Source: Natrinema sp. SYSU A 869 (lineage in GTDB: Archaea > Halobacteriota > Halobacteria > Halobacteriales > Natrialbaceae). Taken from it: a stretch of 64,000 nt of DNA. Positions 20,381 to 50,828 of the stretch are shown here, piece by piece (within the stretch, counting starts at the first letter, position 1; each line of letters opens with the position of its first letter). The translations under genes were made by a program, and so were the position numbers. The DNA lies in contig NZ_CP082247.1 of the NCBI RefSeq assembly GCF_019879105.1, positions 372,001-436,000 on the forward strand. Reading direction: 5' to 3'. The notes under the pieces were generated by a model that did no database searches, was not told where the DNA came from, and saw only the letters and a list, made by a program, of their open reading frames with translations.

Positions 20381-20408
20381 TGCTGACTCCGAAGGGGACA
20401 ACAGAACA

Positions 20409-23775: not shown

Positions 23776-23930
23776 CAGTTAATTTCTTCTTCGATAATCG
23801 TCTCGATGTCGTCGTTGATGCCCATTGGATTGTCGAGGTTGAGTTTCTCCTTCTCGGCAGCCAGTACCCGTTCACGGATTCGCTTTCGCGTTCCGTCTGG
23901 GATAGATATTTCGTCTCCGCTGTCAGTCAT
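23775..23930 (-). CDS. Tiny protein coupled to the DndD-like gene
   Basis: A 51-residue protein (MTDSGDEISIPDGTRKRIRE, then RVLAAEKEKLNLDNPMGIND, ending IETIIEEEIN). A short beta-like start followed by helices gives a faint ribbon-helix-helix look, so it may bind DNA or replace the small DndE partner. Its TGA stop and the DndD-like ATG share one base, so the two are translated together. The function is inferred only from position. Confidence 0.6.
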   Translation of the reverse strand: MTDSGDEISIPDGTRKRIRERVLAAEKEKLNLDNPMGINDDIETIIEEEIN

Positions 23931-24024
23931 CACTCCTACCAGAGTCTGACATCACTTATATCTTATAACGAACGAACGCCTTGCTGTCGGGTGATGAAAT
24001 AGTCTCCGTGAATGACGACTGACT

Positions 24025-28626: not shown

Positions 28627-28835
28627 ATCGACTTACTGGTTGAGTGCGATGATTGCATTGACGCAGTTCGATTACAGTGGCGGTGCGTCACTCGCACGCG
28701 CTATAATGTTGTCACTCTCCTGGGGGTTGTCACTGTCTCAATCAGTGGCACAAACCTATATGTGGTATCACTGGCAACAACAGCGCAACAACCTGTGTGG
28801 GAAATCATCACGCCGCACGTTCATTTTTAGAGGCT

Positions 28836-30923
28836 ATGGCGAACGATCACACTAGTCCATTCGAGAAACAGATGGACAGCGGAGCAGCGTTCAAGTCGGA
28901 TTTGCTCAGTGGGCTTGACAAATCGGAGTGGCCGGGCCGTATTGACTACGTTGCAGGCCGTCTCACCACTGGCGAGTACGCCATTGGACTGGGATCGTCG
29001 AGCACGAAATATCTGACCGATGGTTACGATCTAGAACAGGCGGCCCGGGACTACTACCTCAGGGGAATTGCAGCTCTGACTGGCGATAGGGCACGACAGT
29101 CGGCGTTGCCCGACGATTTCCGGTTAGGGAACCTCCTCGTCGAGTTTGTCGGTCTTCGAGACGGTCTCAAAGACGTTGATCGCCGAGATGTGCCACCTGG
29201 CGAAATCCTTTCACGGATCATTACACGTACCATCCAGCGACAGGCCACCGAACAGAACGCAGAACTCGCTCAGCAGTTGCGCGCAGATACGGAGACACCC
29301 CGTGAACTGGTAGCCGAACTTACAACAGTTCCAGAACTCGCGCGGATGGTCGAATGGGCACTCCCTAAACCAGAGGATCCAGCGACACTCACGACGAAAC
29401 TCGCGTCGCTGGATCTAACGACCGAACTCTGGGATCACCAACTCGAGAGTCTTGCCCTCTGGTTGCACCATGATATGAACGCGTACGTCGACATGGCGAC
29501 GGCAACAGGGAAGACGGTGCTCGGTCTGGCCGCTGTTGCGCACGCCGTTGACTCGGGCTCACTCCATCCAGCCGACCAGAAGCGGCTGGACGACATTTTC
29601 AATGGTGACCTTCCCGAACCCTACCGTGATCGTCCGAACGATGTACTCATCGTCACCACCGACGACCTGCTCAGCGTGCAGTGGGCGCGACTGTTTCAGG
29701 ACCACTGTCACACGCCGCCGGCGTTTACGACTGTTGATGAAACTGGAATCCAGCTCCCGTGGGGGCAGATCGATATTCGGTCGGCGAGCAGTCTGGCCGA
29801 CGTTGACCCGAGCGATTACCGATTAGCAATCTTCGACGAGGTGCACAACTACTCGGGTCGATCCGGCTGGGGCGACCACCTGCTCAAGTTCGTGGAGTCG
29901 CCGTGCCCGATTCTCGCACTGACCGGGAGCGTCACCGACCAGCTGGAGTCACTGGTCTCACAATCCGACCGACCGTTCCCGCTCGTCTACCGGTACACGC
30001 ATGAACTCGCACTCGCCGACGGTGTTATTCCCGACTTCGAGTGGACGCTTTCGTTTACCGATATCACCGACTCCGACGCGCTCACCCAGTTCCGAGAGAC
30101 GGCGGAGCGTTTCGATCAAGTGGCAGACTACGACGCAGGTAGCTACCGGCTCGAACCGGACGCACTCGCCGATATCGCGCCCGAACTCACGGAAGACGAG
30201 GTGTCGACGATGGCCGGCGAATACGTCTCTGGATCAGCACTTGCCAAGGGACTGCGAGAATCCAACGACGATGGCACCGCACCGACGGACTCGCTCGAGT
30301 TGTTGGCGGGCGGCATAAGCAACCGGACCATCCACCGGCTTAACCTCAGGGCCGACCTCAAACCCGTTATCGAGACTGCCGAAGAAGCACTTGCAGAGGA
30401 ACGCCCAGTACTCGTACTCACGCGGTCGTACGGCGAAGCCAAGGAAATCTGGGAAGCACTGTACGATCGGGACGATGACCGCTACGTCCAGAGACTCAAA
30501 GCTGGCGGGTCTGCGACAGACCATGATGACACTATTCGTGCATTTGACGAGGTCGACACAGACGAGAAGGTTCTCATTGGTCCTGGCAAGCGCATCGGAC
30601 AGGGCAACGACATCCAGTCCGTTGAAGTTGGAATCAACATTGCACGTCCCGGTAGCGGCGTCAACGCGTCGCTTGTCCAGCGTCTGGGGCGGCTCCTCCG
30701 AGACGCTGGTGGGAAAGACACCGTTGAGTTCTACCACGTGGTTGGCGTTCCGCCGGCCGATGCAACTATCGAGCCCGATGGCGAGTCGTTCGTCCGGACC
30801 GTCGCGGAGTTCTTTGGACAGGTACTCGAGCCCGACACTGACGGTATTCTCAAACCGCCATCGATTGGTATCGAGGACGGTATCGAGTCGGATGTCGTCG
30901 CGCTCGAACAGCAGGGGGAGTGA
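28836..30923 (+). CDS. SF2 helicase of the Dpd-type locus
   Basis: About 695 residues. A helical N-terminal domain (about 1-190) includes RLTTGEYAIGLGSSSTKYLT. The ATPase then has Walker A MATATGKTVLGLAA (from residue 220), DEVH box AIFDEVHNYSG (about residue 331), motif III in LALTGSV, and motif VI NASLVQRLGRLLRDAGGKD (about 610). It is the first gene of the plus-strand locus, and its stop overlaps the GTG of the next gene by 4 nt. It may play the part of the bacterial DpdE or DpdF helicases, but the order and length differ, so I give no symbol. The start at ATG 28836 is preferred to an upstream in-frame codon. Confidence 0.8.
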   Translation: MANDHTSPFEKQMDSGAAFKSDLLSGLDKSEWPGRIDYVAGRLTTGEYAIGLGSSSTKYLTDGYDLEQAARDYYLRGIAALTGDRARQSALPDDFRLGNLLVEFVGLRDGLKDVDRRDVPPGEILSRIITRTIQRQATEQNAELAQQLRADTETPRELVAELTTVPELARMVEWALPKPEDPATLTTKLASLDLTTELWDHQLESLALWLHHDMNAYVDMATATGKTVLGLAAVAHAVDSGSLHPADQKRLDDIFNGDLPEPYRDRPNDVLIVTTDDLLSVQWARLFQDHCHTPPAFTTVDETGIQLPWGQIDIRSASSLADVDPSDYRLAIFDEVHNYSGRSGWGDHLLKFVESPCPILALTGSVTDQLESLVSQSDRPFPLVYRYTHELALADGVIPDFEWTLSFTDITDSDALTQFRETAERFDQVADYDAGSYRLEPDALADIAPELTEDEVSTMAGEYVSGSALAKGLRESNDDGTAPTDSLELLAGGISNRTIHRLNLRADLKPVIETAEEALAEERPVLVLTRSYGEAKEIWEALYDRDDDRYVQRLKAGGSATDHDDTIRAFDEVDTDEKVLIGPGKRIGQGNDIQSVEVGINIARPGSGVNASLVQRLGRLLRDAGGKDTVEFYHVVGVPPADATIEPDGESFVRTVAEFFGQVLEPDTDGILKPPSIGIEDGIESDVVALEQQGE

Positions 30924-32056
30924 GTATCTATGGTGATAACCAGTCCACCGTCATTGAATCAGCTTACGCGGCCGCGATCGACGAGCAAAGTGAGGGTGAC
31001 AGTCCTGCTGTTGCCACGGACTGGTTCTCCGCAGCCTTCGGCGACGAGGCACAGCCCTCTGTCCGGAACGAAGCGAATACCGGGCGAGTTGGTCGGACCA
31101 GCGACGATGGAACCGATGCACCCGTTTCTACGCAGGATCCGAATTCCGAAGTCGACGGCTTCACAAGTGGCGATGGAAACTGTTCGGATGAAGCTGGGGG
31201 GTCAACTGACGTGGGCAAAACCGTCGAGGATGGAGATGCTGTCGACGAAAGCGGTGCGGATGGCCAAATCGAAGCGAAAGCGGATGTCGATGACGGTGTA
31301 TCGCCGATCGCCGAGTACTATGACGCGTTCCGCAGCCTCGGCATTATCCACAAGGCTCTACTCGAGTCTGCTGAATCGGATATCCCGGATTCGGATCCTC
31401 TGAGCCGCTGGATCGTGGATGTTCGGTCGATCATTACCGAAACGGGCTACGGCGATCAAGAGATCGGCTACGGGAAGCAGCAAGTAGATCGAAGCGAGAT
31501 TTCGATTCATAACTATCGGGAGAAGTACGGGACGGGCGACCGCGTGACTGACTTCAATTTCGTCTCCGTCCACCACACTTCTAGTGCGGTTACGGTGCTT
31601 CTCAATGACTCGCTTTCGGAGCTCTCGTCGTGGGTCATACCCGTCGCACCCGAAAGCGAGGTTCCGCTGCCGGTACTCGTCGAATCCGAGGCGGAACTCG
31701 AACGAGCTCGGGCACTTCTCGATGAATTCCCGACTGAACCACCCGTCCTCGTGGACGAAGCATCTGATACGAACGGCGATGAGGTATCGGGTGAGTTGGC
31801 GACAGCGGATCAGGTCGGAACGGCGATAGAAGATGACTCCGGGTCGACCTCTCCACAATCAGAATCAGAAGAGTCCTCCTCAACGCCGGTTGAAGATGTC
31901 CGTGGTGTGTCTGATTCAGTCGCGGAGGCATTGCGCAACGCAGGCTATGAACGTCTGGTTGATCTTCAGACTGCTACGGATGAGGAGCTCGAAGCGGTAG
32001 AGGACGTCTCAGCGCAACGCGTCCAGCTTATCAGAGCAACGGTCGGGAGCCGATAG
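30920..32056 (+). CDS. Acidic protein with C-terminal helix-hairpin-helix
   Basis: A 378-residue protein. Residues 40-125 are low-complexity acidic. A folded middle domain (about 125-265) includes IAEYYDAFRSLGIIHKALLE. After a second acidic linker, a C-terminal HhH domain (VRGVSDSVAEALRNAGYERL, then DLQTATDEELEAVEDVS) could bind DNA without sequence preference. The GTG start lies inside the stop of the helicase (GTGA overlap), so the two are translationally coupled and probably form a complex. No counterpart is known to me among the bacterial Dpd proteins. Confidence 0.7.
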   Translation: MSIYGDNQSTVIESAYAAAIDEQSEGDSPAVATDWFSAAFGDEAQPSVRNEANTGRVGRTSDDGTDAPVSTQDPNSEVDGFTSGDGNCSDEAGGSTDVGKTVEDGDAVDESGADGQIEAKADVDDGVSPIAEYYDAFRSLGIIHKALLESAESDIPDSDPLSRWIVDVRSIITETGYGDQEIGYGKQQVDRSEISIHNYREKYGTGDRVTDFNFVSVHHTSSAVTVLLNDSLSELSSWVIPVAPESEVPLPVLVESEAELERARALLDEFPTEPPVLVDEASDTNGDEVSGELATADQVGTAIEDDSGSTSPQSESEESSSTPVEDVRGVSDSVAEALRNAGYERLVDLQTATDEELEAVEDVSAQRVQLIRATVGSR

Positions 32057-32160: not shown

Positions 32161-34164
32161 ATGGCAGATTTTCGGGTAACGTCGGTCGGTGACGACGGGT
32201 ACGGCCGTTTGGGCGAACTCGACATCCCACATGGGCCGGTCGAGACGCCAGTGCTCTTCCCGGTAATCAATCTCATTGGTGGAACCACGACTGAATCGGG
32301 CGGTGTCTGGAGACGGATGCGAGACAATCTCATCTCGCGTGATCATCTTCAGGGGATCATGTTTCAGGCGATGAGTTTCACGGACTACGGGGTCTCTCCG
32401 GGGAATCTAAACGAATTCTGGCGAGCCGAGACGTTCCACGAACGATTCGACAACCTCGATGCCCCCGTATTCATCGACTCCGGCGGATTCAAACTGATGA
32501 ATTCTAACACCTTCGGTAAGGCTCCAACCGAAGGCGGCGCCGAGAACGACTGGGGACTGTATACGAATCCTGCGAGCATCCTCGGACTACAACTGGATTT
32601 CGGCAGCGACATTATCGCCACGCTCGATTATCCGATTCCGCCGAAGCTCAACGAAGAGGAGAAATTCGAGCGGATGGAACGCAGTATTGAAAGCGCCGTG
32701 GACTGCCTACGGATCGTCGAAGATCCGTCGCTGCTAACGGATGGCCAGAACGACAACAAGCGAGCCAGACAGCACCTCGAGCGGCGGAAGGCCGAAGGGG
32801 ACGAGCCCGGCGTCTTCATCGCACTCCACGGCCACGACTACGAGACGATAAACTGGTACGTCGGGAACTTCCTTGAGCAGGTTGACGACGCCGGCCTCGA
32901 GCACGCGTTCGAGGGGTTCGCGATCGGGTCACTCGTGCCCTTACGGAGCAGTATCGACGTTCTGGTCGATATCGTTCAGGGGGCGAAAGATGCCATCCCA
33001 ACATCGCGCGCAGACGAGGTGGGGGTTCACGTCTTCGGTGTCGGGGGAAAACAGGTATCGCTGCTCGCGCTTCTCGGCGTCGACTCCTTCGACTGTTCCA
33101 GTCACATGCAGACTGCCCAGTATCGAAAGTACCTTCTCCCCGACAAGTGGGAAACCATCGAACTCGATGATTTAGAGTCTCATCTCGGCGATGACGGCGA
33201 GTTCCCCTGCGAAATGAGCAACTGTACGCTCTGTGGTCCCGACAGTGAGGTCGAGAGCTACGAGGAGATGATGCAAATCCTCAACAGTGATATGTCCTAT
33301 GACGAGCGAGAGCGCCGGAAGGACAACGATCAATACATCAAAAGTGACTACTACGGCCATCTCGCGCGACACAATTTCGAAGTCTACAACGAGGAGCTCT
33401 CGCGAGTCCGCGACCAGATCAGGCAGGGAACACTTCTGGATTACGTCATCGAGTTCGCCAGACAGGCCGACGATATCAAGAAGGGGCTCAAGCAGGCCCA
33501 GCTTCGTAACCAGGGACTCCAACGCGATATCGAGGAGCGTGGAGCGTACGACTTGATTGCAGGGATCGATATCACGAGCGATCAGTCGAAACTTTCCAAG
33601 TTCGGTGCTGGCGTCGACGAGACGACAGAGAACCGTACGATTTCGCTACAGCACACTCCCAACGACTTCGATGTGCTTGCGCGAGACTACGAACCTCCAG
33701 CTGACAGAAACGTTCTCCTCGTCGTTCCATGTAGTCAACAGAAACCGTACTCGGAGTCACGAACGCATTCTGTGTTAATGGACAAAATTGGTGACCGCCG
33801 CGACGACATCCACAAGGTCACTCTCTCGGGAATGTACGGCCCGGTCCCAGAGGAATGTGAATCTGAACAGCCAGTTCTCGAGTACGAGTACGTTCTTGCC
33901 AAGGAGGATCACGCACAAATCGAACTCGTGACCGATCGTCTCGTCGCATATCTCGAGCGGCACAGCGATCAGTTCGACCATGTTGTCGGCTACGTGACGA
34001 GCAAGACCTACCGGCAAGTCATCGAGGACGCCTTCGATCAGTACGGCCGTGGGACCGTCCTTCCCCGCGATCCGAAGGCAATGCAACTCACTGAATTCTT
34101 CCGCTCAAGTAACACGCAAGAACTTGTCGAGTATCTAGATCGGGAGGCGGCAGATTTCGTATAG
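32161..34164 (+). CDS. dpdA: DpdA-like DNA transglycosylase fused to an ArcS-type domain
   Basis: A 667-residue protein. Residues 1-350 form a tRNA-guanine-transglycosylase barrel: FIDSGGFKL carries the catalytic Asp106, GVDSFDCSSHM carries the second Asp (311), and C350-x4-C355-x2-C358 with a later His (about 404) can bind the structural zinc. DpdA enzymes swap guanine for preQ0 in DNA. The C-terminal 150 residues contain PCSQQKPYSESRTH (523-536), an exact match to the ArcS signature PCx3KPYx2Sx2H. ArcS turns preQ0 in tRNA into archaeosine, with the Lys of KPY as the reactive residue. So this one protein may insert preQ0 and convert it. It sits between the helicase/HhH pair and the restriction genes. 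No PUA (tRNA-binding) domain is seen, which argues against a tRNA enzyme. Confidence 0.85.
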   Translation: MADFRVTSVGDDGYGRLGELDIPHGPVETPVLFPVINLIGGTTTESGGVWRRMRDNLISRDHLQGIMFQAMSFTDYGVSPGNLNEFWRAETFHERFDNLDAPVFIDSGGFKLMNSNTFGKAPTEGGAENDWGLYTNPASILGLQLDFGSDIIATLDYPIPPKLNEEEKFERMERSIESAVDCLRIVEDPSLLTDGQNDNKRARQHLERRKAEGDEPGVFIALHGHDYETINWYVGNFLEQVDDAGLEHAFEGFAIGSLVPLRSSIDVLVDIVQGAKDAIPTSRADEVGVHVFGVGGKQVSLLALLGVDSFDCSSHMQTAQYRKYLLPDKWETIELDDLESHLGDDGEFPCEMSNCTLCGPDSEVESYEEMMQILNSDMSYDERERRKDNDQYIKSDYYGHLARHNFEVYNEELSRVRDQIRQGTLLDYVIEFARQADDIKKGLKQAQLRNQGLQRDIEERGAYDLIAGIDITSDQSKLSKFGAGVDETTENRTISLQHTPNDFDVLARDYEPPADRNVLLVVPCSQQKPYSESRTHSVLMDKIGDRRDDIHKVTLSGMYGPVPEECESEQPVLEYEYVLAKEDHAQIELVTDRLVAYLERHSDQFDHVVGYVTSKTYRQVIEDAFDQYGRGTVLPRDPKAMQLTEFFRSSNTQELVEYLDREAADFV

Positions 34165-34802: not shown

Positions 34803-37800
34803 ATGAACGCACCAAGAGACAGGCTCGATACCGCCGTTGACAGAGCCGCAGAAGTGACGTGGTGGAACCGCCAGATGACGAAACTGACGGATGTCGATGG
34901 CGTCGATAATGCTCAGCAGTTCGTCGAAGACGATATTATCGAACGTAAGGGCCCGTACGTGGAGTTTGTCGACGCTCCGGAATTTCACGACCAGACTGCA
35001 GCCGACTTCCTCTCGGGACTCGATTATCACGATCACATCATCGACGCTATTACTGCCGAACTGTTCGGTGGTGACTCATCAGGTTCGCTCTACCAGCACC
35101 AGGCCGAGACAATATCGGCTATCGAATCAAATAACGAAGATAACATTCTGTCTGTTCCGACGGCGACAGGAAAGACCGAGGCGTTCTTTCTACCGATCCT
35201 CGACCACTGCCTCTCGACGGACGAACAGGGATTGAAGTCGATCGTTCTCTATCCCATGAAGACGCTGGGCGTCGACCAGCTCAATAGGTTCGTCTCGTAT
35301 CTCGACGAGATCAACCGACGACGTGATCCCGATGATCGGATCACTATCGGCATCTGGGACTCGGATACGCCCTCCCGTGTGGGCACACGGGACCACGAAA
35401 TCGAAGTCGGGTCGTACGTCCGTGGACTGGAGTGCCCTCGTGAGGAGGGCGAGAAACTCAAGATCCTCGGCGAGATGAGCGTCGGGACGAATAATCACCA
35501 GTATCCCTGGCTCCGAGTGACACGCGAAAGTATCCGACGCGGCGTCGATATCTTGCTGACCGGGCCGGAAGCGCTCGACTACATGTTCGTTAGCGACAAC
35601 GAGGAGACGCGGTCGATTCTCGGCGATCAACCGGGAGATGTACCGCTCAAACACGTCGTCTTCGACGAGGCCCACGTCTGGAGCGGCATCCAGGGTGCGG
35701 CTATCTCGCTGCTCTCTCGCCGACTCAAATCCTACTATGTGGAGCGTGATCCCCAGATCACGATGGTCTCGGCGACGGTCGATAACCCCACGGAACTGGC
35801 TTCCGACCTGACCGGCTCCGACGAAGAGACGATTAATACGGTCGAATTCAGTGCACGCGACTTCGACGCACGAGGAACAGCTGACTTCGGCCGTCTCCAG
35901 CCGTGTGAGGTCGACGAACTCATCTCGGCGCTGGCACTCGTTCACGTCCTCGATGTCGACGAATCGATGCTTGCATCGGAGTTCGACCTCGAGAACGCCC
36001 TCGCGACACTCCGTGCGGTAGGGTTGGTAACAGGAACAGACCCGGTCAGGCTCACAGACACGGCCGGTGACTGGGTAACGAGACCGATTGATCACGCTAT
36101 CGAACGTACTGTCGATAATGACGATGAGACCTACCCCGACGCTGCGACGGTCGTCACTACCGAACGCGGACGCGACCGGATCGTCGATTCGGTGGTAGCT
36201 GCCAGCGGGACTCAGTCGGGCTGGTTCGAGTTTGTCATGGCATCGGTCCCGGAAGTTGCACAGTTCGCGGCGTGGTTCGACACGGATACGACCGGTGTGG
36301 TCGGTTTCAAGCACTACGATGATCTCGTCGATCAGTTGGCCGATGCCGGCCTCGATGACCCGGCGGGGATCCTTCAGGCAGTTATGGCCTTCGGACGGCT
36401 CGCTGGTGTCGTGACGGAAAAATATCACTCCTTCCTGAAGCCGCCACACAAGGTGTTCTGGTGTCGGGACTGCGAGCGTGTCGCACGCGATAGTCGGTGT
36501 CCCGACTGCAGGGCGGACCTGCCGGAGATGCAGTTCTGTCGTCGTTGTCACCAGCCGTATGTCGAAATTCCGTCCACCGATCCGTCGGGGGGTGGTGAAG
36601 CGTCTGGAAGTGACTCGTTGGGCGATTCATCATTCGTCCCCGTCGGCGCTGACGCAGTCGATACGACCGCGGCCGGCGGCCAGTGTCCAGGCTGTGACGG
36701 CTCACCACAGCTCACTGATGTCGGTGTACCGACCGCGTCACTGCTGTCGTACATGCTGACCGAGTTGTGTCGCGTCTCGCCATCGAAGAAGACGCTCGTA
36801 TTCTCCGATTCCCGAAGTACTGCGGAGTCCGTCGGTGATCGTATCATCGACACGGAATACGGGCTGATGGCCGAAACGCTCTACATCGACGAACTCATCG
36901 ACCGGGGCGGTCGTGCCGATAACTACGAACTCTTTCGGGCAGTGTCCGACCGCCTCCGCGAGGAGTACTGGGATCCGCTCATTCAGAACGACGTCAATGA
37001 AGACGGCACGGCCTACAACTTCCTGCGGACACTGCTCGACGACATTGAGGCCCACGCGATGCTGTCCAACTGTGATCACCTGCTGGACAGCGCGCTCGTG
37101 ACCGCTGCACCGATTTACGATGCCGACAGTCTCGAGGAACTCCTCGTGGGCCACGCACTGTACTCGCTGTTCGCTGGCTCGTCGAATCCGTCGTTCTCCA
37201 AGCAGCGAATGCGGTTCGATGGATTGACTCGCGGGAAGATTCTCGACCGCCTTGACTCGCGGACTGGGTATGACCGATCGCTAATCGATCACCACCTCGA
37301 TTCAGTCCTGCAGACGTTGCTTGACGTCGGCGTCGTCAGTGAAGTTACGTGGGACGAGGTCAGAGAGACGATTCAGTCCTCCACACAGGGTGAAGCTGCC
37401 AAAGATGAGGTCTTCGACTTCATCGAGGCTGCTAGGGAGACGGCGATCGAACACGAACTGATAGCGGACCCGGAAAGCGGCGTCTTCACACGGATCCCGC
37501 AGCGCGACGATAGCGATCTCGTCCTACTGCCGCGAGCGGCTTTCTGTGCCGAGTGTTATCGTTCATATCCAGTGATGGCCGACGGCGATGCACTATCGAC
37601 GTGTCCCCATTGCGAGGCGTCGCTGAAGACCTATCGGCGGTTCAGCGAGACCGACGACGGCTTCGTTGCCAATCCGGGATACGCGGACGCTGCGAGTGAG
37701 TGGGAGTACGCTATCGATCACTGGTCTCACGATGTGACGCGACCGATACGTAACGGTGCTATTCCGGAGTACGTCTCTGTCGGGATCCACAAGGGCAACA

Positions 37801-39590
37801 TTCCGCACTCCCTTCGAGGCGCGATCGAGGAAGGGTTCCGGAAGGACGACCCCGACGTCAACATCGTCAGTGCCACGCCGACGATGGAGCTGGGTGTCGA
37901 CATCGGTACGTTAGACACCGTTGCACAGGTCGGCATCCCACCGACGTTGACAAACTACGTCCAGCGCAGCGGTCGTACTGGTCGTACCCGTGGGAGCTCC
38001 TCGCTCGTCGTCACCGCCATCCGCGGGAACCATCCGGTCGACAGCCACTACTATGGCAACCTCGAGACGTTCCTCGGGGAATTTGAGCCGGTTCGCGTCC
38101 CGGACCCGTACGACTTCGACGAACTTCTGGCAGGCCACGTCGTGACCGAGACGTTCGCTTACCTCGCTCGGAATCCCCACGAGAGCAACGTCTTCGAGAA
38201 GATGTACACTATCGATGAAAACAAGGAGAACCTGGTCAACTTCATCAATTCCGTAACAAATCAGCTTGATATCCTTCGGGAGTTCATGCTCGAAGAGCGC
38301 CGGGAGGCCGTCGTAGCTCACGTGGAATCGGTCTTCGGCGACCGCGGTGTCGAGGCCTTCGAGCAGGTATTCGAGGATGACGGGCCGCTGTCGCTGGACA
38401 ACCGTATGGAGAAGACATTTTCGAAGCTGACGGGCATGTCCGGTGAGGGCGAGACCAACAAGTCGCTGACGGAGCAGAACGGTCGCCTTGACCAGTGGCT
38501 TCAGCGACTGGGATATCTCGCCAACTACCGGTCGTTCGGCCAGCAGTTCCCCGTCAAGTTCACCGGAGCCAACGATGGCATCCAGTTCGAGAGTGAGGGC
38601 CGGCTCTACGACATGTTCCCGGGAGAGGAGAACGACCTCGGTTCGGTGATGACGCTACACGGCACGGACTACATCGTCGACGATGTCCACGGGACGTCGA
38701 CACCGCTGACGACCGTCGCTATCTGCGATAACGACGACTGCGAACGACCGTTCCAGAGCTATCGGCCCGCCGTCGAGACGTGTCCGCACTGCGGTTCGGA
38801 GGTAGTTGAGACACCGATACACGGCGTCAGCTCCGTCGAGTGTAAGGCCGCTCGCGGCGGCCAGAAGGGGTACACGACTCGCGGGCTCCAGTCGACGTTC
38901 ATCGAAGAGCCGACCGCCGACACGGCGGTCAAGATGACTGACGACCGGACGATCTTCGACATGGACGCTCGGCTCACGTACGGCCAACTGGAGGTGACTG
39001 ACTTCGTCTACGCCTTCGAACGGTGGCACACCAGAGGCAGTGAGAAGGACGTCTTGCGGTCCGAAGCGGTCATCGAGCGCGACGAGGCCGGCGGCTCGTC
39101 CGGAGGCTCATGGCAGGATCGGATGGAGGACGTCGAGGAGGAACTCTACCGGCCGGTCGGCCAGCAGTACTTCACGCAAGGGCTCGCGATCCGTTTCGAC
39201 GAAACCGAGGTCCGAGCGCGCTACGAAGAGGCGGTTCACGAGTCCGTTTCGTGGCCCCAGGCGCTGGTCAGTCTCGAGCAGGCCCTCGAAAAGGCAATCG
39301 CAATCGTCGCCGAGTGTGACCGTGACGACTTCCGCGTGAAGGCCAGTACAACGGGCGAGGATGTCGTCGTATACATCGTCGACTCGCGACAGGGCGGCAA
39401 CGGCATCACGTGGCAGGTCATGGACCGGCTGACAGCCGTCGAGCGTCGCGTCCGAGAAGTCGCTGACTGCGACCGCTGTCGCAATTACTGCGACGAGTGT
39501 CTCCTCCTCGCACGAACACCGGCGTACTATCTCGACAACGACCTGCTCGACCGCCGGACGCTCGCCGCTGTCGTTGGAGGCACACCGTGA
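34803..39590 (+). CDS. Giant DEAD/DEAH helicase with DUF1998-like C-terminus
   Basis: A 1595-residue protein. Walker A is PTATGKTEAFFLP (about residue 119), Ia VLYPMKTLGVDQLNRF, motif II VVFDEAHVWSG (DEAH, about 287), III in TMVSATV, and the C-half has PTMELGVDIGTL and YVQRSGRTGRTRG (about 1052). Cysteine knuckles lie at CRDCERVARDSRCPDC and CRRCHQ (about 553-583) and at CERPF/CPHCG (about 1310). The end (YIVDSRQGGNGITWQVM, then CDRCRNYCDECLL) is the DUF1998-type zinc tail also found in DISARM DrmA/DrmB and MrfA-like helicases. In this locus it probably translocates on DNA during restriction. Its stop overlaps the next GTG by 4 nt. A long antisense frame across its front is a shadow. Confidence 0.85.
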   Translation: MNAPRDRLDTAVDRAAEVTWWNRQMTKLTDVDGVDNAQQFVEDDIIERKGPYVEFVDAPEFHDQTAADFLSGLDYHDHIIDAITAELFGGDSSGSLYQHQAETISAIESNNEDNILSVPTATGKTEAFFLPILDHCLSTDEQGLKSIVLYPMKTLGVDQLNRFVSYLDEINRRRDPDDRITIGIWDSDTPSRVGTRDHEIEVGSYVRGLECPREEGEKLKILGEMSVGTNNHQYPWLRVTRESIRRGVDILLTGPEALDYMFVSDNEETRSILGDQPGDVPLKHVVFDEAHVWSGIQGAAISLLSRRLKSYYVERDPQITMVSATVDNPTELASDLTGSDEETINTVEFSARDFDARGTADFGRLQPCEVDELISALALVHVLDVDESMLASEFDLENALATLRAVGLVTGTDPVRLTDTAGDWVTRPIDHAIERTVDNDDETYPDAATVVTTERGRDRIVDSVVAASGTQSGWFEFVMASVPEVAQFAAWFDTDTTGVVGFKHYDDLVDQLADAGLDDPAGILQAVMAFGRLAGVVTEKYHSFLKPPHKVFWCRDCERVARDSRCPDCRADLPEMQFCRRCHQPYVEIPSTDPSGGGEASGSDSLGDSSFVPVGADAVDTTAAGGQCPGCDGSPQLTDVGVPTASLLSYMLTELCRVSPSKKTLVFSDSRSTAESVGDRIIDTEYGLMAETLYIDELIDRGGRADNYELFRAVSDRLREEYWDPLIQNDVNEDGTAYNFLRTLLDDIEAHAMLSNCDHLLDSALVTAAPIYDADSLEELLVGHALYSLFAGSSNPSFSKQRMRFDGLTRGKILDRLDSRTGYDRSLIDHHLDSVLQTLLDVGVVSEVTWDEVRETIQSSTQGEAAKDEVFDFIEAARETAIEHELIADPESGVFTRIPQRDDSDLVLLPRAAFCAECYRSYPVMADGDALSTCPHCEASLKTYRRFSETDDGFVANPGYADAASEWEYAIDHWSHDVTRPIRNGAIPEYVSVGIHKGNIPHSLRGAIEEGFRKDDPDVNIVSATPTMELGVDIGTLDTVAQVGIPPTLTNYVQRSGRTGRTRGSSSLVVTAIRGNHPVDSHYYGNLETFLGEFEPVRVPDPYDFDELLAGHVVTETFAYLARNPHESNVFEKMYTIDENKENLVNFINSVTNQLDILREFMLEERREAVVAHVESVFGDRGVEAFEQVFEDDGPLSLDNRMEKTFSKLTGMSGEGETNKSLTEQNGRLDQWLQRLGYLANYRSFGQQFPVKFTGANDGIQFESEGRLYDMFPGEENDLGSVMTLHGTDYIVDDVHGTSTPLTTVAICDNDDCERPFQSYRPAVETCPHCGSEVVETPIHGVSSVECKAARGGQKGYTTRGLQSTFIEEPTADTAVKMTDDRTIFDMDARLTYGQLEVTDFVYAFERWHTRGSEKDVLRSEAVIERDEAGGSSGGSWQDRMEDVEEELYRPVGQQYFTQGLAIRFDETEVRARYEEAVHESVSWPQALVSLEQALEKAIAIVAECDRDDFRVKASTTGEDVVVYIVDSRQGGNGITWQVMDRLTAVERRVREVADCDRCRNYCDECLLLARTPAYYLDNDLLDRRTLAAVVGGTP

Positions 39591-40504
39591 TCAGAGACCA
39601 ACTGCTCGATGGGGTTCGGGATGCGGATATCGTTTATATGTACGATCCAAGGGAGAACTCGCGATGGGGGTTGCTCCGGGGGTTGCCCGCCCTCCATTAC
39701 CTGGGAATTGACGACTTCACCTATCCCACATCGTGGTGTCAGTTTGGCCGCGGAAGCCGGCACTTCGAACTCGAGTACGACTACCACGTCGTCAGCAATG
39801 GCCTCGATATTCCGGACGAAACCCCTGACTTCGGTGTCGTCACCAACGAGTACTACGAGGAGGAGACTCCCTATACGATCAAGTTCCTCATCAACCGGTA
39901 CACGGCGGGCGGGTCCAAACTGTTCGTCTTGACTGACGATAGGCTGTTCGAGCCACAGGGCGCTCGACGGCCGCTTTATCAGGAGCCGTTCGTCGACATG
40001 CTTGGGACCTATACCTCGGTGTACGAGGTATTCGAATCGGCGTATCGGGAAGCCGATTGGGAGCTCCCGCTTTCGGACACGAAGAACCTCTTCGTCCAGG
40101 ACAACGCGAACCTATATCGTCTCGTTTCGGGCGAATCACTCTCCGGGACGACCGAGTTGTTCGAGGTACTGCCGGAGGCACCATATCTCCCACTGTACGA
40201 CGCATTGTCGAGCGTCTTCTCCCGACCGAACGAGTATGGAGCAGTCCCGCTGGACGCCGAGAGCGGCTTACCCGAACTGGTTCGCTGGCTTCGACGACGA
40301 ATCGAGTGGGACCGCGACACCGCTCGCAAGATAGCGACCGCGCTGAATGAGGCGGTCGTCGCCGATGGGAGCACGTTCGACCGTGCGGCTGCTCGTCGGG
40401 ACCCAACGGTCCGCGACGCGAAACTCGCTGCGAACGACCTCGAGCCGACAGCATCGCCAATCGACCGACGATACGCAGACTGGCTAACGAGATACGATCT
40501 ATAA
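39587..40504 (+). CDS. Unknown protein of the Dpd-type operon
   Basis: A 305-residue protein starting at a GTG (MIRDQLLDGVRDADIVYMYD) that overlaps the helicase stop. It is a mixed alpha/beta protein without membrane segments. Visible blocks are RENSRWGLLRGLPALHYLGI, TSWCQFGRGSRHFELEYDYH, PYTIKFLINRYTAGGSKLFV and LYQEPFVDMLGTY. No nuclease or ATPase motif is recognised. Locked between the DUF1998 helicase and the DpdG-like gene (2-nt gap), it is probably a required subunit specific to this archaeal version. Confidence 0.7.
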   Translation: MIRDQLLDGVRDADIVYMYDPRENSRWGLLRGLPALHYLGIDDFTYPTSWCQFGRGSRHFELEYDYHVVSNGLDIPDETPDFGVVTNEYYEEETPYTIKFLINRYTAGGSKLFVLTDDRLFEPQGARRPLYQEPFVDMLGTYTSVYEVFESAYREADWELPLSDTKNLFVQDNANLYRLVSGESLSGTTELFEVLPEAPYLPLYDALSSVFSRPNEYGAVPLDAESGLPELVRWLRRRIEWDRDTARKIATALNEAVVADGSTFDRAAARRDPTVRDAKLAANDLEPTASPIDRRYADWLTRYDL

Positions 40505-40506
40505 TC

Positions 40507-41340
40507 ATGAGCGAAGGATACATCCTCAACGCACTGCAGACTCCGGCCTTGTTACGGCCGGTGTACGAATCAGTACAGGACGGGAACGTCACACAAACAG
40601 AGATCGGGGACGATACTGGACTTGACGACGACGCAGTCAAACAGGCCACCGACGGACTTCGATACGTCCGTTTGCTCGGCCGCGAAGACGGTGAGTATTA
40701 TGTCGTCGAGCCGCCGTGGGCTATCGAAGACCCACAGCTCGCGTTTCGCATGGCTATCCTCCATTCTCTCGCGGGAGAGTGTACGCCCGGCGACTGGGGA
40801 ACGCAAGCGGTCGTGCTGTTGAACTACCAGTACCTTCTCCAATACGACGTACAGTACTTCGAGGCCAACGACGAGGTACTCTACGACGCGATCAACACGT
40901 GGCATCGGGACGAGAAGAACTACGTCCCGATGTCCTCGCAGGGGGAGATCGACCTCAACGAGAACAAGTTCGTCAACTGGGCTCGCATCGTAGACTACCT
41001 CGGACTCGTCCACAAGGCTCGCGGTCGAGAACACACAGTCTATCCTGACTCCGAGATTATCGCAACATCAGTGTCACTCGCTGTGGAGGAAACCGGAACT
41101 GACGGGCATATCGGCATCACCGAGTACCTCGGATGGCTGCGCGAGAACCTCCTACCCGTCGAACTGACGAGCGGCGGCGAGGTTCCTGCACCGCTGGCGC
41201 GGGTCCTCTACAATCTGGTGCGTGACGGCCGACTCCGGATCGTCGAGTATGGCGACGCAGAAGCGGTCTCACTCGCCCGGACGCCCAAACGCAATGGGAT
41301 CGCCACTGAGGCGAATACACTCGAGGTGGTGGCAGAATGA
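40507..41340 (+). CDS. dpdG: DpdG-like protein
   Basis: A 277-residue protein with an N-terminal winged-helix-like segment (ILNALQTPALLRPVYESVQD, then TQTEIGDDTGLDDDAVKQAT) and later DNKFVNW-type helical repeats (NENKFVNWARIVDYLGLVHK). Position before the DpdH-type ATPase, length near 280-300 and the two-part helical layout fit DpdG of 7-deazaguanine restriction clusters. Its role is unknown, probably an adaptor between DNA and the ATPase. The stop overlaps the ATG of the next gene by 4 nt. The symbol rests on gene order and ought to be confirmed by profile search. Confidence 0.6.
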   Translation: MSEGYILNALQTPALLRPVYESVQDGNVTQTEIGDDTGLDDDAVKQATDGLRYVRLLGREDGEYYVVEPPWAIEDPQLAFRMAILHSLAGECTPGDWGTQAVVLLNYQYLLQYDVQYFEANDEVLYDAINTWHRDEKNYVPMSSQGEIDLNENKFVNWARIVDYLGLVHKARGREHTVYPDSEIIATSVSLAVEETGTDGHIGITEYLGWLRENLLPVELTSGGEVPAPLARVLYNLVRDGRLRIVEYGDAEAVSLARTPKRNGIATEANTLEVVAE

Positions 41341-44246
41341 GCGATGCCGCGCAGTCGCCGGTGTCCTCAGCAGAGGCCGCCTGTCCTCACCTCCATGAGG
41401 TCGACAACCGGACGCTCCACCAGTTGTTCAGCAAGGTCGCTGCCGTTCGCTCGGAGAATCGCGACCTATTCGATTTCACCCACCGACGTATCGACGTCTT
41501 CCGGCGGACGGCGGGACGGTCAGAGGTGGTCTCGGAGGACGAGGTCTACGATGAGTTCGACGAAGACCGGCTGAAGAACTTCGCTGTCGTCATCGAAGGC
41601 GAGGTCGGGACCGGAAAGTCGGAACTCTGTGCCGCTCTCGCTCACCAGCTTCGCGATGACGGACGGCCACTACTCCACGTGGACAAGGAAGACGACCTGA
41701 TGTCGCTTCTGAGCGATCGGATCCCGGAATTTTACCGCGAACAGTTTGGTGAAGAGATGGATGGTGCGGCGGATTTTCAGCAGCTCCGCGACGATATCGA
41801 GTCGATTCCTCAGGTCGTCGCGAACAGCGCCGTTTCGAACACGATTCTCAACCTCAACCAGCGCGGCTACAATGTCACCGCTACCGAAGACCAGCAGGAC
41901 GAGGTCCGCGACTTCATCCGCGACAAACTCCAGTTGTTCGTCGAGAGCGGTCAGTATGCTACTGAGGTGACATTCGTCACCGAACAGGAGTACCGACAAA
42001 ACGACTTCCTGCAGATCTTCACAGCCACGGCCGTCGAGGAAGCAGTCGAGATTTTTAACGAGGAGATGTGGCGCGTCGTCCGCGACCGCTACGAGACGGC
42101 GTCGCTCTCGGAGGTCCTCAAACGGGTCGGTGCGGCGTTCACTGATACGCGACCGGTCATCGTGTTCGAGGACTTCTCAGTCACTTCCATGGAAGCGGCG
42201 AAACTGGCTCGATTCATCGAGAGCGACTCGACAGAGAACACGTGGGACTTCATCATCGCCGGAACGCGTGACTCGACCGGGCCACTTCACAGCCGGACGG
42301 CCGAGGACCGCTACGAGTTCTACCAGACCAACGAGGCGGATTCACAGAACGTCCTCTTTCTCGACGAGGAGAGCGCTGTCGACTTCGTCCGGCCGTACCT
42401 CGGTTACTTCAAGTCCTTCGACGGCAGCGTGAACTACGATCGCGACCACGAAGCAGGGACGTTCGAGTTACAAGCGGCACCATCCGAATCAAGGTGTGCC
42501 GACTGCGGGCTCTGTGACGAACAGTTCCGGGACTTGTTCCCCTTCAACGAACACTTCCTCAGGCGTATCTTCGTGGGACTCGACGAGGACCGTCGATCGC
42601 CGCGGGAGTACATCATGACAATCTTCGATGTGCTCAGTGACTACTACGAGGGGAAGATCGACGCTCCGTCGGACGCAAAAGCGCTGAAACCGCTGGTAAA
42701 TCGGGTTTCCGTTGCCGACGCTGTCTACGAGGATGCCGAAGCCTTCTCGCATCTCGCGCGATGGTACGGGCACCTGAACGATATCGACGACACAGTCGAG
42801 GTTGACAGGCGATTTGCGGAGGCGTTTGGCCTCGTCGAACCCGATGACGATACTGGTGACCTTCCCGGGCCGATTGAGGCGACCGACGACACCGTCATCG
42901 TGCCGTCGTCGGATATCGATATTATCACAGACCCGCCGGGCGGGGGCGATGATGACGACGATGGCGATGACGACGAGGCGGGCCCGCCACAGACGGACCC
43001 AGTCGATGACGAATTTGCCGACAAGGCGCCGCTTCTGGAGTCGTGGTTGAACGTTCCCGACAAGTTCGCTCAGACAACTGTCTACCTAAAGCGTGGCCTT
43101 GAGGATGCAATTAAGCGACTTACGGACGGCTACGTGCTATATCAGGGTACCGACCTTGAGTACAACCTCAGCAGCCAGAAGCGACCGTTCGTCTTCTCGA
43201 TAACCGAGGAGACACCAGGAGAGGATCAGATCGTAATCGATCCGGCGGAGTTCCGGCTCTCCGATCTGCGGAGCGTCCTTCGGTTCGGAATCGAACGCGA
43301 CATGACGCCCCGAAGCGCCGACTATGAGGCGTTACTTCAGGAATGTGGTACTCAACTGACCGGCTACGCTCAGGCTTGGCGAGCCAAAGTCCGACGGACG
43401 TACCTCCAAGACAGCGGTGTCCTCTACGAGAAACAGGCACAGGGTCGATACGATTTCGCCGACTTCCTCCTCGGCGCGTATTGCTACGTAGTGTTACTCG
43501 ATTCGCCTTGGCAGCGACTTACAGCGGAGGCGCTCGCCGATCGGTTCGACGATGGTGAGTATACGATCGACGATGACATTAGTTCGTGGTTGCAAACGGA
43601 ACTAGAACACGAGAGCTACGAGGCGCTCAGTAATCTCGTCGATGCAGGATCGCATCTCGAGACGATGGTCGGTGAACTGTTCGGGGTCAGCGGCTCGGAT
43701 CTGGATCGTCTCAAAGTACGTCGCTGGTTCAAGCGCAATTCACCCCGAGACATACTCGCGTCACTAGCGCGGACATATATTGATAACATCGATACCCGGG
43801 TTCGGTTCGCTGATGGGACGACCGTACAGACCCTCGCGAACACGGCGTATGATACCCGAAGCGCACTTGAGGAAATCGATAATCGATATCAGCACGAGGT
43901 CGTTGAAGACGTCGCATCGAACCTCGATGGGCTTTCGATTGATACTGTAGAACAGACTGTATCGAAACTCGATACATACGACGTGAGCCCGGACGTGATG
44001 GAACCACTCAAGCAGTTCCTCCGTCTGAGCCAATCGACCATCGATGACGCTGCGGCTGCAGCGGCGATTGCCACAGACCTCCGGCTGCGGACGTCCTTTG
44101 AGGCCCTTCAGGCAACGCTGGCGAGTATCAAGCTTGCTAACTCGACGGTCTACCAGCGGTACAGCAGTATCCAGTTGCAAACAAGAGACAGCCCGGGACA
44201 GATCGGGGAGGAATTCACGGAGGTGGCTGAACACTATGTCGAGTGA
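41337..44246 (+). CDS. dpdH: DpdH-like ATPase
   Basis: A 969-residue protein. The P-loop is VIEGEVGTGKSELCAAL (about residues 83-99) and the Walker B-like acid is in RPVIVFEDFSV (about 272). A cysteine pair region reads SRCADCGLCDEQF. A very acidic Asp/Gly linker lies near 535-555, and the C-terminal 400 residues are helical. Size, single P-loop and place between the DpdG-like and coiled-coil genes fit DpdH, an ATPase required for restriction of unmodified DNA in bacterial dpd clusters. It is part of the overlapping operon: ATGA with the gene before, 11 nt with the gene after. Confidence 0.7.
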   Translation: MSDAAQSPVSSAEAACPHLHEVDNRTLHQLFSKVAAVRSENRDLFDFTHRRIDVFRRTAGRSEVVSEDEVYDEFDEDRLKNFAVVIEGEVGTGKSELCAALAHQLRDDGRPLLHVDKEDDLMSLLSDRIPEFYREQFGEEMDGAADFQQLRDDIESIPQVVANSAVSNTILNLNQRGYNVTATEDQQDEVRDFIRDKLQLFVESGQYATEVTFVTEQEYRQNDFLQIFTATAVEEAVEIFNEEMWRVVRDRYETASLSEVLKRVGAAFTDTRPVIVFEDFSVTSMEAAKLARFIESDSTENTWDFIIAGTRDSTGPLHSRTAEDRYEFYQTNEADSQNVLFLDEESAVDFVRPYLGYFKSFDGSVNYDRDHEAGTFELQAAPSESRCADCGLCDEQFRDLFPFNEHFLRRIFVGLDEDRRSPREYIMTIFDVLSDYYEGKIDAPSDAKALKPLVNRVSVADAVYEDAEAFSHLARWYGHLNDIDDTVEVDRRFAEAFGLVEPDDDTGDLPGPIEATDDTVIVPSSDIDIITDPPGGGDDDDDGDDDEAGPPQTDPVDDEFADKAPLLESWLNVPDKFAQTTVYLKRGLEDAIKRLTDGYVLYQGTDLEYNLSSQKRPFVFSITEETPGEDQIVIDPAEFRLSDLRSVLRFGIERDMTPRSADYEALLQECGTQLTGYAQAWRAKVRRTYLQDSGVLYEKQAQGRYDFADFLLGAYCYVVLLDSPWQRLTAEALADRFDDGEYTIDDDISSWLQTELEHESYEALSNLVDAGSHLETMVGELFGVSGSDLDRLKVRRWFKRNSPRDILASLARTYIDNIDTRVRFADGTTVQTLANTAYDTRSALEEIDNRYQHEVVEDVASNLDGLSIDTVEQTVSKLDTYDVSPDVMEPLKQFLRLSQSTIDDAAAAAAIATDLRLRTSFEALQATLASIKLANSTVYQRYSSIQLQTRDSPGQIGEEFTEVAEHYVE

Positions 44247-44940
44247 CCGATCAGGCGAAGATGAAAGCGAAGAAACGTTCGAGGATCAACTCGAGTCGAT
44301 GTACGAGCGGTACCGGCGGCAGCACCTCGAAGACGAACTCGAGGCGCTAGCGATGACGATGGAGGAGACGCTGTTGCAACAGGCGATCGCCGAGACGTTC
44401 TTCGAAGAATCGATCGAGATTGAGAGCGATGTCAAGGCCGCAGTTGAAGCGACCGTCGAGAAGCTCGAAGCCGGCAAGTACGATACGGTTGAAGCGGAGC
44501 TCGACGAGCTCTCGAAGCAGGTCGACCGTGCAGAAACTCGCATCACGAACAGGATCCAGCAGCTCAGGATCGATCGACAGGACACGGCCACTGCGATGCG
44601 TCGACTGAACGAACGTGTCCAGCGCATCGACGGGTCGCAACTGCAGGCGCTCGAGACGTTACTGGACGACTGGAACTGGAAAGAGGAGGTCTTCGTCGAA
44701 TCAAATGAGACGTATGCAGACCGGCGGAAGACGGCCGCCCAATACGGTGAGGACATGCGAGTCGTCTTCGAGACGCTTAAGGAGCAACTGTTCGGCGTCT
44801 ACGAGGATACTGAACTCCGACCGCTGGTCGACGACCTCCTTGATGATGACCGACTCCGGTTGGGTGATCTCACGCTGGCAGAACGTCGACAGCTCGCTGA
44901 CTCCGACCTGGCCAATTACATCGAGTTGAAACTCTCGTAA
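44236..44940 (+). CDS. dpdI: DpdI-like coiled-coil protein
   Basis: A 234-residue acidic protein. Most of the first 130 residues form a coiled coil (EDQLESMYERYRRQHLEDEL and VEKLEAGKYDTVEAELDELS), followed by a smaller helical C-domain ending DLANYIELKLS. It starts 11 nt inside the DpdH-like gene. Position and length fit DpdI of bacterial clusters, whose role is unknown; here it probably bridges the ATPase and the next helicase. Symbol by gene order only. Confidence 0.5.
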   Translation: MSSDRSGEDESEETFEDQLESMYERYRRQHLEDELEALAMTMEETLLQQAIAETFFEESIEIESDVKAAVEATVEKLEAGKYDTVEAELDELSKQVDRAETRITNRIQQLRIDRQDTATAMRRLNERVQRIDGSQLQALETLLDDWNWKEEVFVESNETYADRRKTAAQYGEDMRVVFETLKEQLFGVYEDTELRPLVDDLLDDDRLRLGDLTLAERRQLADSDLANYIELKLS

Positions 44941-49212: not shown

Positions 49213-49642
49213 GAGCCTGCGATACTTCATCGGCTACACGCTGTTGCACGCCCGTCGAGCAGTCATCGTCTCGCCGTGGTTGAGTGACGTGGAACTGCGG
49301 TTCCCGGTGAACGAACACCTCGACGACCGCCGGATGGGGATGCTCGATGCCATTGATGAACTCCCCAATACGGATGTGACGCTGATCATTCGCGAGGGCG
49401 AGGATCACAATGATTTCATCCGCAATCGGCTTCCTCAGGGCGTGTCGTTGCTCGAGATCGATGATCTCCACGCGAAGGTCGTCGTTTGTGACGAATTTGC
49501 CTACCTCGGGTCGGCCAACATCACCAGAGGCGGACTTGCCCTTAACCGAGAAGTCTGCGAGATAATCGAAAACGAGTACGAGGACGCCATCACCTACGTC
49601 AGCGAGGAATTGGATATCACCCTCCCGCGCGACCAGCCCTGA
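49184..49642 (+). CDS. dpdK: DpdK-like phospholipase D-family nuclease
   Basis: A 152-residue protein with one HKD motif, H96-A-K98-x4-D103, followed by YLGSANITRGG (G109, S110, N112). Single-HKD proteins of this size work as dimers and can cleave DNA, as in Nuc or DrmC. In dpd clusters DpdK is the PLD-type member, proposed to cut DNA lacking the 7-deazaguanine base. It overlaps dpdJ and has its own strong ribosome binding site. It is the last gene of the plus-strand operon. Confidence 0.85.
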   Translation: MVRAFSLTSESLRYFIGYTLLHARRAVIVSPWLSDVELRFPVNEHLDDRRMGMLDAIDELPNTDVTLIIREGEDHNDFIRNRLPQGVSLLEIDDLHAKVVVCDEFAYLGSANITRGGLALNREVCEIIENEYEDAITYVSEELDITLPRDQP

Positions 49643-50825: not shown

Positions 50826-50828
50826 TAA

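What the first reader, a model, noticed from the sequence alone, without database searches (positions are those of the whole stretch)
32161..34164. One protein carries both the TGT active site and the ArcS amidinotransferase signature inside a Dpd-type restriction locus
Seen: FIDSGGF (Asp106) and SFD (Asp311) of the transglycosylase barrel, cysteines 350/355/358, and PCSQQKPYSESRTH at 523-536. Known: tRNA archaeosine needs a TGT to insert preQ0 and ArcS, with signature PCx3KPYx2Sx2H, to convert it. In bacterial dpd clusters DpdA inserts preQ0 in DNA and a separate DpdC makes the final base. Inference: this enzyme may insert preQ0 into DNA and then convert it to archaeosine (dG+) by itself, which would make it a self-contained DNA-archaeosine synthase.
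Basis: partly seen in the sequence, partly recalled or inferred. Interest (0 to 1): 0.92.

Follow-up and report, generated by a model that had tools for sequence, protein, structure and literature searches.

The report
Two-site DNA base-swapping enzyme in haloarchaea
A salt-loving archaeon carries a protein with two intact active sites that should swap a normal guanine in DNA for an unusual base and then finish that base, but relatives in about 40 genomes show that it nearly always comes with a fixed set of partner genes in a self-marking antivirus island of a kind recently predicted and never tested.

Summary
ORF 32161-34164 (667 aa, "FUS") joins a tRNA-guanine-transglycosylase (TGT) barrel that keeps both catalytic aspartates and its zinc ligands to an ArcS-type DUF5591 domain with the full signature. 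Both sites are invariant or nearly so in 38 FUS proteins down to 40% identity. The ArcS fold is confirmed (Z 15.4 to AF0587). Unlike true ArcS, FUS has no C2/PUA tRNA-binding domains, and its TGT part is not ArcS-derived: its sister is a second TGT.

"Self-contained" is not supported. In 391 haloarchaeal genomes, 38 of 39 FUS carriers also carry a lone TGT, a GHKL ATPase and a DpdC-like DUF6884 protein. In the window's genome these lie 33 kb downstream, outside the window, and the DUF6884 gene is frameshifted. Five genomes replace FUS by a viral-type DpdA plus a second DUF6884. About a third of loci carry preQ0 genes (queD/queE/queC, sometimes folE). Two YprA/DpdJ-like helicases, a DpdH-like ATPase and a DpdK-like PLD nuclease follow. 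This fits BRIGADE Type I, a predicted, untested haloarchaeal class (PMC12458937).

Best reading: FUS is one of two "TGT plus finishing domain" units of a DNA-marking module. The product, dG+ or a preQ0-lysine adduct, is unproven. New variant of a known kind.

The parts
32161..34164 (+). FUS: TGT domain (about residues 1-440, catalytic D106/D311, Zn C350/C355/C358/H404) plus ArcS-type DUF5591 domain (about 508-632, PCSQQKPYSESRTH at 523-536); no C2 or PUA domain
34803..39590 (+). YprA-like helicase 1 (DruE/ARMADA-like, 1595 aa, with C-terminal MZB zinc domain); recurrent at relatives' loci
39497..40504 (+). conserved gene of the restriction module, no family match
40507..41340 (+). conserved gene of the restriction module, no family match
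41337..44246 (+). STAND/AAA ATPase, DpdH-like (a family member hits DpdH, E 1.2e-6); in 30 of 391 genomes, 27 of them with FUS
44044..44940 (+). conserved gene of the restriction module, coiled-coil-like weak matches only
45121..49212 (+). YprA-like helicase 2, Dpd branch (DpdJ E 2.2e-52)
49175..49642 (+). PLD-family nuclease overlapping the end of the DpdJ-like gene; a family member's best hit is DpdK (E 7.3e-15)
28797..30923 (+). helicase related to PbeA/dnd restriction helicases; its cluster recurs in 17 loci; membership in the system uncertain
30920..32056 (+). helix-hairpin-helix protein overlapping the helicase gene; recurs with it; membership uncertain

Best explanation
FUS is a two-active-site subunit of the DNA-marking module of a Dpd-like (BRIGADE Type I) self/non-self system of haloarchaea. 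Host-made preQ0 is exchanged for guanine in DNA by TGT domains. Each locus carries two 'TGT plus finishing domain' units: the lone TGT with the small DUF6884 (DpdC-type) protein, and FUS, in which an intact TGT is fused to an ArcS-type domain. The adjacent GHKL ATPase probably gives the ATP-driven DNA handling that DpdB gives in bacteria. The ArcS-type domain then adds an amine donor to the nitrile of preQ0 in DNA, giving a lysine adduct, or archaeosine (dG+) if the host RaSEA or ammonia/glutamine chemistry completes it. The two YprA-like helicases, the DpdH-like ATPase and the PLD nuclease attack DNA without the mark. Shown: the genes, complete active sites, gene linkage and exchangeability of parts. 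Inferred: DNA as substrate, the division of labour, the product base, the restriction.
For: Both active sites invariant across 38 FUS. FUS and the lone TGT share ancestry and are separate from TgtA and ArcS (tree supports 100/96 and 99/90). Co-occurrence of FUS (39 genomes) and lone TGT (43 genomes) in 38 (Fisher p 4e-46); GHKL in exactly the same 43 genomes, DUF6884 at all 43 loci; 31 of 38 pairs within 3.4 kb, 37 within 34 kb. Replacement of FUS in five genomes by a DpdA related to that of virus HRTV-29 plus a second DUF6884; HRTV-29 itself has DUF6884 next to DpdA. queD/queE/queC and sometimes folE beside the module at about 13-14 of 43 loci, in five or six of 13 tested genomes as an extra QueC copy. 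DpdJ, DpdH-like, DpdK-like genes; DpdH-like ATPase in 30 genomes, 27 with FUS (p 4e-29). Separate single-copy tRNA TgtA, ArcS and RaSEA in the host; FUS lacks the C2 and PUA domains of the host ArcS.
Against: No biochemistry and no DNA nucleoside data. The donor and product of the ArcS-type domain cannot be told from sequence, and no RaSEA was seen at the locus. The lone TGT matches DpdA only weakly (32 bits against a cut-off of 200) and FUS not at all. In this genome the DUF6884 gene is split between two frames, so the system may be impaired here. FUS occurs once without the partners (G237) and they occur five times without FUS.
Confidence: 0.72

Rival explanations
1. One reading: FUS alone inserts preQ0 in DNA and converts it to dG+, a self-contained DNA-archaeosine synthase.
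For: Both active sites are complete and under constraint; one FUS genome (G237) lacks the lone TGT and GHKL.
Against: 38 of 39 FUS genomes keep the lone TGT, the GHKL ATPase and DUF6884; the lone TGT is itself catalytically intact; ArcS of Thermococcus needs RaSEA (PMC11298593), which was not seen at the locus.
Confidence: 0.1
2. The TGT domain of FUS only holds DNA or pairs with the lone TGT (like the eukaryotic QTRT1/QTRT2 heterodimer); the lone TGT inserts preQ0 and FUS only finishes it.
For: Constant pairing of two sister TGTs; ArcS in tRNA is the finishing partner of a separate TGT.
Against: Unlike ArcS, whose DSGG/QG motifs have decayed, FUS keeps D106, D156 and D311 in 38 of 38, which a purely structural partner would not need.
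Confidence: 0.3
3. FUS modifies tRNA or another RNA, not DNA.
For: TGT and ArcS homologues act on tRNA; Thermococcus ArcS accepts even preQ0 nucleoside (PMC11298593).
Against: Patchy presence (39 of 391 genomes), linkage to DpdJ/DpdH/DpdK-like genes, a complete separate tRNA pathway in the host, loss of the C2 and PUA tRNA-binding domains.
Confidence: 0.05
4. In this particular strain the marking module is decaying: the DUF6884 gene is frameshifted and the module is split over 33 kb.
For: Two overlapping frames at C1:438549-438656 and 438644-438988.
Against: FUS, the lone TGT and the GHKL gene are intact; one frameshift in a run of A may be an assembly error; three relatives of the same family show the same 25-34 kb split with an intact DUF6884 gene.
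Confidence: 0.15

Closest known systems
BRIGADE Type I (Bell et al. 2025 preprint, PMC12458937)
   Same: Only in halophilic archaea; two YprA-like helicases, one of the Dpd branch; PLD nuclease; a predicted 7-deazaguanine gene cluster.
   Different: The held text names no TGT pair, no TGT-ArcS fusion, no DUF6884 or GHKL core; its supplementary figure and tables could not be read, so these genes may be listed there. No experiment on BRIGADE is reported in the text read.
Bacterial Dpd islands (dpdA-K)
   Same: A TGT for DNA, a DUF6884 protein (the Pfam family given for dpdC in PMC11888242), DpdJ-like helicase, DpdH-like ATPase, DpdK-like PLD nuclease, preQ0 genes nearby.
   Different: No DpdB seen at the locus, with a GHKL ATPase instead; two TGTs from an archaeal branch, not the DpdA equivalog; an ArcS-type domain in place of, or beside, DpdC.
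Archaeal tRNA pair TgtA + ArcS (with RaSEA)
   Same: Domain order TGT-DUF5591 as in ArcS; ArcS signature and fold; TGT plus finishing enzyme logic.
   Different: FUS has a complete TGT active site and no C2 or PUA domain; its TGT domain branches with the lone TGT of the locus, not with ArcS.
Phage/virus 7-deazaguanine DNA pathways (phage 9g, Vibrio phage nt-1, HRTV-29, HVTV-1)
   Same: DpdA plus an amidotransferase or DUF6884-type finishing enzyme to mark DNA; nt-1 uses an ArcS homologue (PMC6884629).
   Different: Viral anti-restriction use with separate proteins; here a cellular island with a restriction module and one fused protein.

Membership tests
BRIGADE Type I | Two YprA-like helicases, one ARMADA-like and one of the Dpd branch | tested here: met
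   34803-39590: DruE 8.6e-45, MZB domain; 45121-49212: DpdJ 2.2e-52. Profile hits only; no helicase tree was built.
BRIGADE Type I | PLD (or PD-(D/E)xK) nuclease in the neighbourhood | tested here: met
   49175-49642 PLDc_2; family member's best hit DpdK 7.3e-15
BRIGADE Type I | 7-deazaguanine derivative gene cluster, halophilic archaea only | tested here: met
   FUS, lone TGT, DUF6884 and, in relatives, folE/queD/queE/queC; no FUS outside the window's own order in a 345-genome phylum sample
Bacterial Dpd / DpdA equivalog | TGT above the DpdA curated cut-off (NF041059, 200 bits) | tested here: not met
   lone TGT 32.4 bits; FUS no hit
Bacterial Dpd | DpdB (DndB-like ATPase) | tested here: inconclusive
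   no DpdB hit among the locus proteins scanned; not every neighbour was scanned
Bacterial Dpd | DpdC-type finishing protein (DUF6884) | tested here: met
   DUF6884 E 4e-15, DpdC (PADLOC) 2.9e-7 in relatives; at all 43 loci, frameshifted in the window's genome
ArcS (archaeosine synthase alpha) | PCx3KPYx2Sx2H signature and DUF5591 fold | tested here: met
ArcS (archaeosine synthase alpha) | equivalog score (NF040592 cut-off 440), decayed TGT site, C2 and PUA domains | tested here: not met
   113.8 bits; TGT site complete; no C2/PUA in FUS, both present in host ArcS
TgtA (tRNA-G15 transglycosylase) | equivalog score (TIGR00432 cut-off 350) and QG motif | tested here: not met
   103.8 bits; HG instead of QG at residue 223
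TGT superfamily (active enzyme) | two catalytic Asp, zinc ligands, TIM-barrel fold | tested here: met
DNA 7-deazaguanine modification system | 7-deazaguanine base in DNA | not testable with these tools
   needs LC-MS/MS of DNA nucleosides

The most novel reading that the evidence does not exclude
A cellular system that writes archaeosine, or a new lysine-carrying preQ0 base, into its own DNA with two paired 'TGT plus finishing domain' units, one of them a single polypeptide carrying both complete active sites, driven by a GHKL ATPase in the place of DpdB. It would extend archaeosine chemistry from tRNA to host DNA in archaea.
Probability: 0.4. Interest if true: 0.82.

Novelty: new variant of a known kind. 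Interest (0 to 1): 0.63.

Why it matters
The class (BRIGADE) has been predicted from helicase trees and not tested. This work gives it a defined four-gene marking core (DUF6884, lone TGT, GHKL ATPase, TGT-ArcS fusion), shows that the fusion keeps two complete active sites, and shows that viral-type parts can replace it. That turns a vague 'base hypermodification' label into a concrete test: which 7-deazaguanine sits in haloarchaeal DNA, and which of two transglycosylases puts it there. An archaeosine-type base in the DNA of a cell, rather than of a virus, would be a notable find.

Tried and rejected
Relatives in viral contigs: none found, so not an obvious virus gene. Q-to-H at residue 223 as a hallmark of DNA-acting TGTs: rejected, because plasmid TGTs of cyanobacteria, one annotated DpdA, keep Q, although phage 9g DpdA shows HAGEP there (by eye). 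FUS as an ArcS with a revived TGT domain: rejected by the tree, with the caution that ArcS branches are long. The preQ0 operon as decisive proof: weakened, because in about half of 13 tested genomes the locus QueC is the only full copy and must also serve tRNA. Naming 39497-40504 and 40507-41340: no family match. Viral-type DpdA (310 aa) in Pfam: no match, identified only by tblastn to HRTV-29. Structure search with the whole FUS model covers only the TGT domain, so the C-terminal domain was folded and searched alone. The supplements of the BRIGADE preprint could not be read.

Full report
What is there. The ORF at 32161-34164 (+) encodes 667 residues. Pfam places a TGT domain at 13-338 (E 3.7e-28) and DUF5591, the ArcS core, at 508-632 (E 6.2e-20). 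NCBIfam scores it far below the equivalog cut-offs of both TgtA (103.8 of 350 bits) and ArcS (113.8 of 440).

Are both active sites real? An alignment of 15 relatives from named haloarchaea (45-71% identical) and a wider set of 38 distinct FUS proteins (median identity 51%, minimum 40%) keep D106, S107, G108, G109, D156, D311, H404, C524, K528, P529, Y530 and S533 without exception; H536 is Q in two and the zinc cysteines vary in one or two. In ordinary ArcS, which has the same domain order, the DSGG and QG motifs of the TGT part have decayed, while C2 and PUA domains are present; FUS has neither of those two domains. AlphaFold models support both halves: the TGT part matches archaeal TGT 1iq8/1j2b with Z 33.1, and the C-terminal part folded alone (pLDDT 82.5) matches AF0587/2q07 with Z 15.4, the next and unrelated row being 8.5; by sequence profile 2q07 is also the only significant solved match (1.8e-10).

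It does not travel alone. Next to nearly every relative sits a second, 413-residue TGT, followed by a 516-residue GHKL ATPase and preceded by a small protein of the DUF6884 family, the Pfam family given for DpdC in PMC11888242. In 391 genomes of the class, FUS is in 39, the lone TGT in 43, the GHKL ATPase in exactly the same 43; 38 genomes have all three (Fisher p 4e-46). A six-frame profile search finds DUF6884 upstream of the lone TGT at all 43 loci. FUS lies within 3.4 kb of the lone TGT in 31 of 38 genomes and within 34 kb in 37. In the window's own genome the trio lies at C1:438549-441824, about 33 kb downstream of FUS and 2.5 kb beyond the end of the window; its DUF6884 gene is broken into two overlapping frames.

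Interchangeable parts. Five genomes with the lone TGT and GHKL have no FUS. At its place they carry a 310-residue protein related to the DpdA of Halorubrum virus HRTV-29 (26.8% identity, E 1e-12) plus a second DUF6884 protein. HRTV-29 itself carries a DUF6884 gene beside its DpdA. On a Haloferax plasmid a 964-residue protein with a weak TGT match and a DUF6884 domain sits beside a 344-residue lone TGT, and on a Picosynechococcus plasmid an annotated DpdA fused to DUF6884 lies near a 307-residue lone TGT. The recurring plan is one lone TGT plus one TGT joined to a finishing domain. This is why I read FUS as one of two 'TGT plus finishing domain' units; it is an inference from anatomy.

Origin. 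A tree of TGT domains puts FUS and the lone TGT as sister clades (100/96), the Haloferax/Natronococcus lone TGTs next (99/90), and TgtA and ArcS apart. The ArcS branches are long, so the statement that FUS is not derived from ArcS is well supported but not final.

Substrate and supply. At about 13-14 of the 43 loci the neighbours include queD, queE, queC and sometimes folE; in 13 genomes tested the locus copy of QueC is an extra copy in five or six and the only full copy in the rest. The window's genome has one full QueC elsewhere, and its own tRNA enzymes TgtA, ArcS and RaSEA (model TIGR01210; that this model is RaSEA is from my own knowledge) on the main contig. Thermococcus ArcS works only in complex with RaSEA and makes preQ0-lysine, which RaSEA turns into G+, while ArcS of M. 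jannaschii is reported to use ammonia, asparagine or glutamine (PMC11298593). No RaSEA was seen at the locus. The final base may therefore be a lysine adduct, dG+, or with the DUF6884 protein dADG. I cannot tell from sequence.

Restriction side. Downstream of FUS lie a DruE/ARMADA-like YprA helicase with an MZB domain (34803-39590), two unnamed conserved genes, a STAND ATPase whose family hits DpdH (E 1.2e-6 in a relative), a coiled-coil-like gene, a DpdJ helicase (45121-49212, E 2.2e-52) and a PLD nuclease (49175-49642) whose family hits DpdK (E 7.3e-15 in a relative). The DpdH-like ATPase occurs in 30 of 391 genomes, 27 of them with FUS (p 4e-29). No such ATPase was found in the five genomes without FUS.

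What is known. Bell et al. (PMC12458937, 2025 preprint) define BRIGADE: two YprA-like helicases (ARMADA-like plus Dpd-branch in Type I), a PLD nuclease and a predicted 7-deazaguanine cluster, only in halophilic archaea. The window's locus meets these criteria at the level of profile hits. The text read does not mention TGT pairs, an ArcS fusion, DUF6884 or a GHKL ATPase; its supplements could not be read. Separately, PMC12839542 describes TGTs in BREX-related systems and suggests a STAND ATPase may stand in for DpdB; I suggest the GHKL ATPase may do so here. FUS was not found in a 345-genome sample of the phylum outside the window's own order nor in viral contigs.

Verdict. Observation confirmed. 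Interpretation half right: a DNA-directed, two-site enzyme in a Dpd-like island is the best reading, but as part of a fixed four-gene core, not a self-contained synthase, and with the product base open.

Noticed in passing
L007:8549-8988 (G000 C1:438549-438988; beyond the window end): DUF6884 gene upstream of the lone TGT is split between two overlapping frames within a run of A: either decay or an assembly error.
   Followed up: partly
window 21745-25434 (-): DndD-like ATPase (E 3.6e-54) and DNA phosphorothioation restriction helicase (TIGR04095, E 1e-163) side by side: a partial Dnd-type system in the same island; the same pair lies next to the marking core in L041 and L043.
   Followed up: partly
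L080:12018-18562 (Haloferax alexandrinus pBNX82-4) and L081:7606-10348: A second, different haloarchaeal paired-TGT system: 964-aa protein with weak TGT match plus DUF6884, lone TGT of 344 aa, an unnamed 298-300 aa gene, BREX-type ATPase and QueD.
   Followed up: partly
L118:706-6714 (Picosynechococcus plasmid): Annotated DpdA is a DUF6884-TGT fusion and sits near a lone 307-aa TGT: the fused-plus-lone TGT plan exists in bacteria too.
   Followed up: partly
L079:20001-38518 (Haladaptatus sp. YSMS36 plasmid): Two different FUS genes in one locus, with the lone TGT, GHKL, DUF6884, PLD and DpdJ-type helicase.
   Followed up: partly
L052, L053, L055-L057: Genomes without FUS carry a viral-type DpdA, two DUF6884 genes and a GmrSD-like modification-dependent nuclease (829 aa) right after the GHKL gene.
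   Followed up: partly
L119:2020-3145 (virus HRTV-29): The gene annotated 'peroxide stress protein YaaA' beside DpdA is a DUF6884 protein and probably its finishing partner.
   Followed up: partly
window 50142-51950 (-): A two-gene pair (227 aa, looks PIN-like by eye, and 373 aa) recurs next to the DpdJ-like gene in L039 and L049; possibly an accessory module.
   Followed up: no
window 53054-54121 and 19457-20401: Two TFIIB genes in the island; transcription factor B genes recur near the marking core in about eight loci.
   Followed up: no
window 33673-34161 (C-terminal domain model): After ArcS, many structural matches are uracil-DNA glycosylases (Z about 7); this is within the range of chance similarity.
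   Followed up: no
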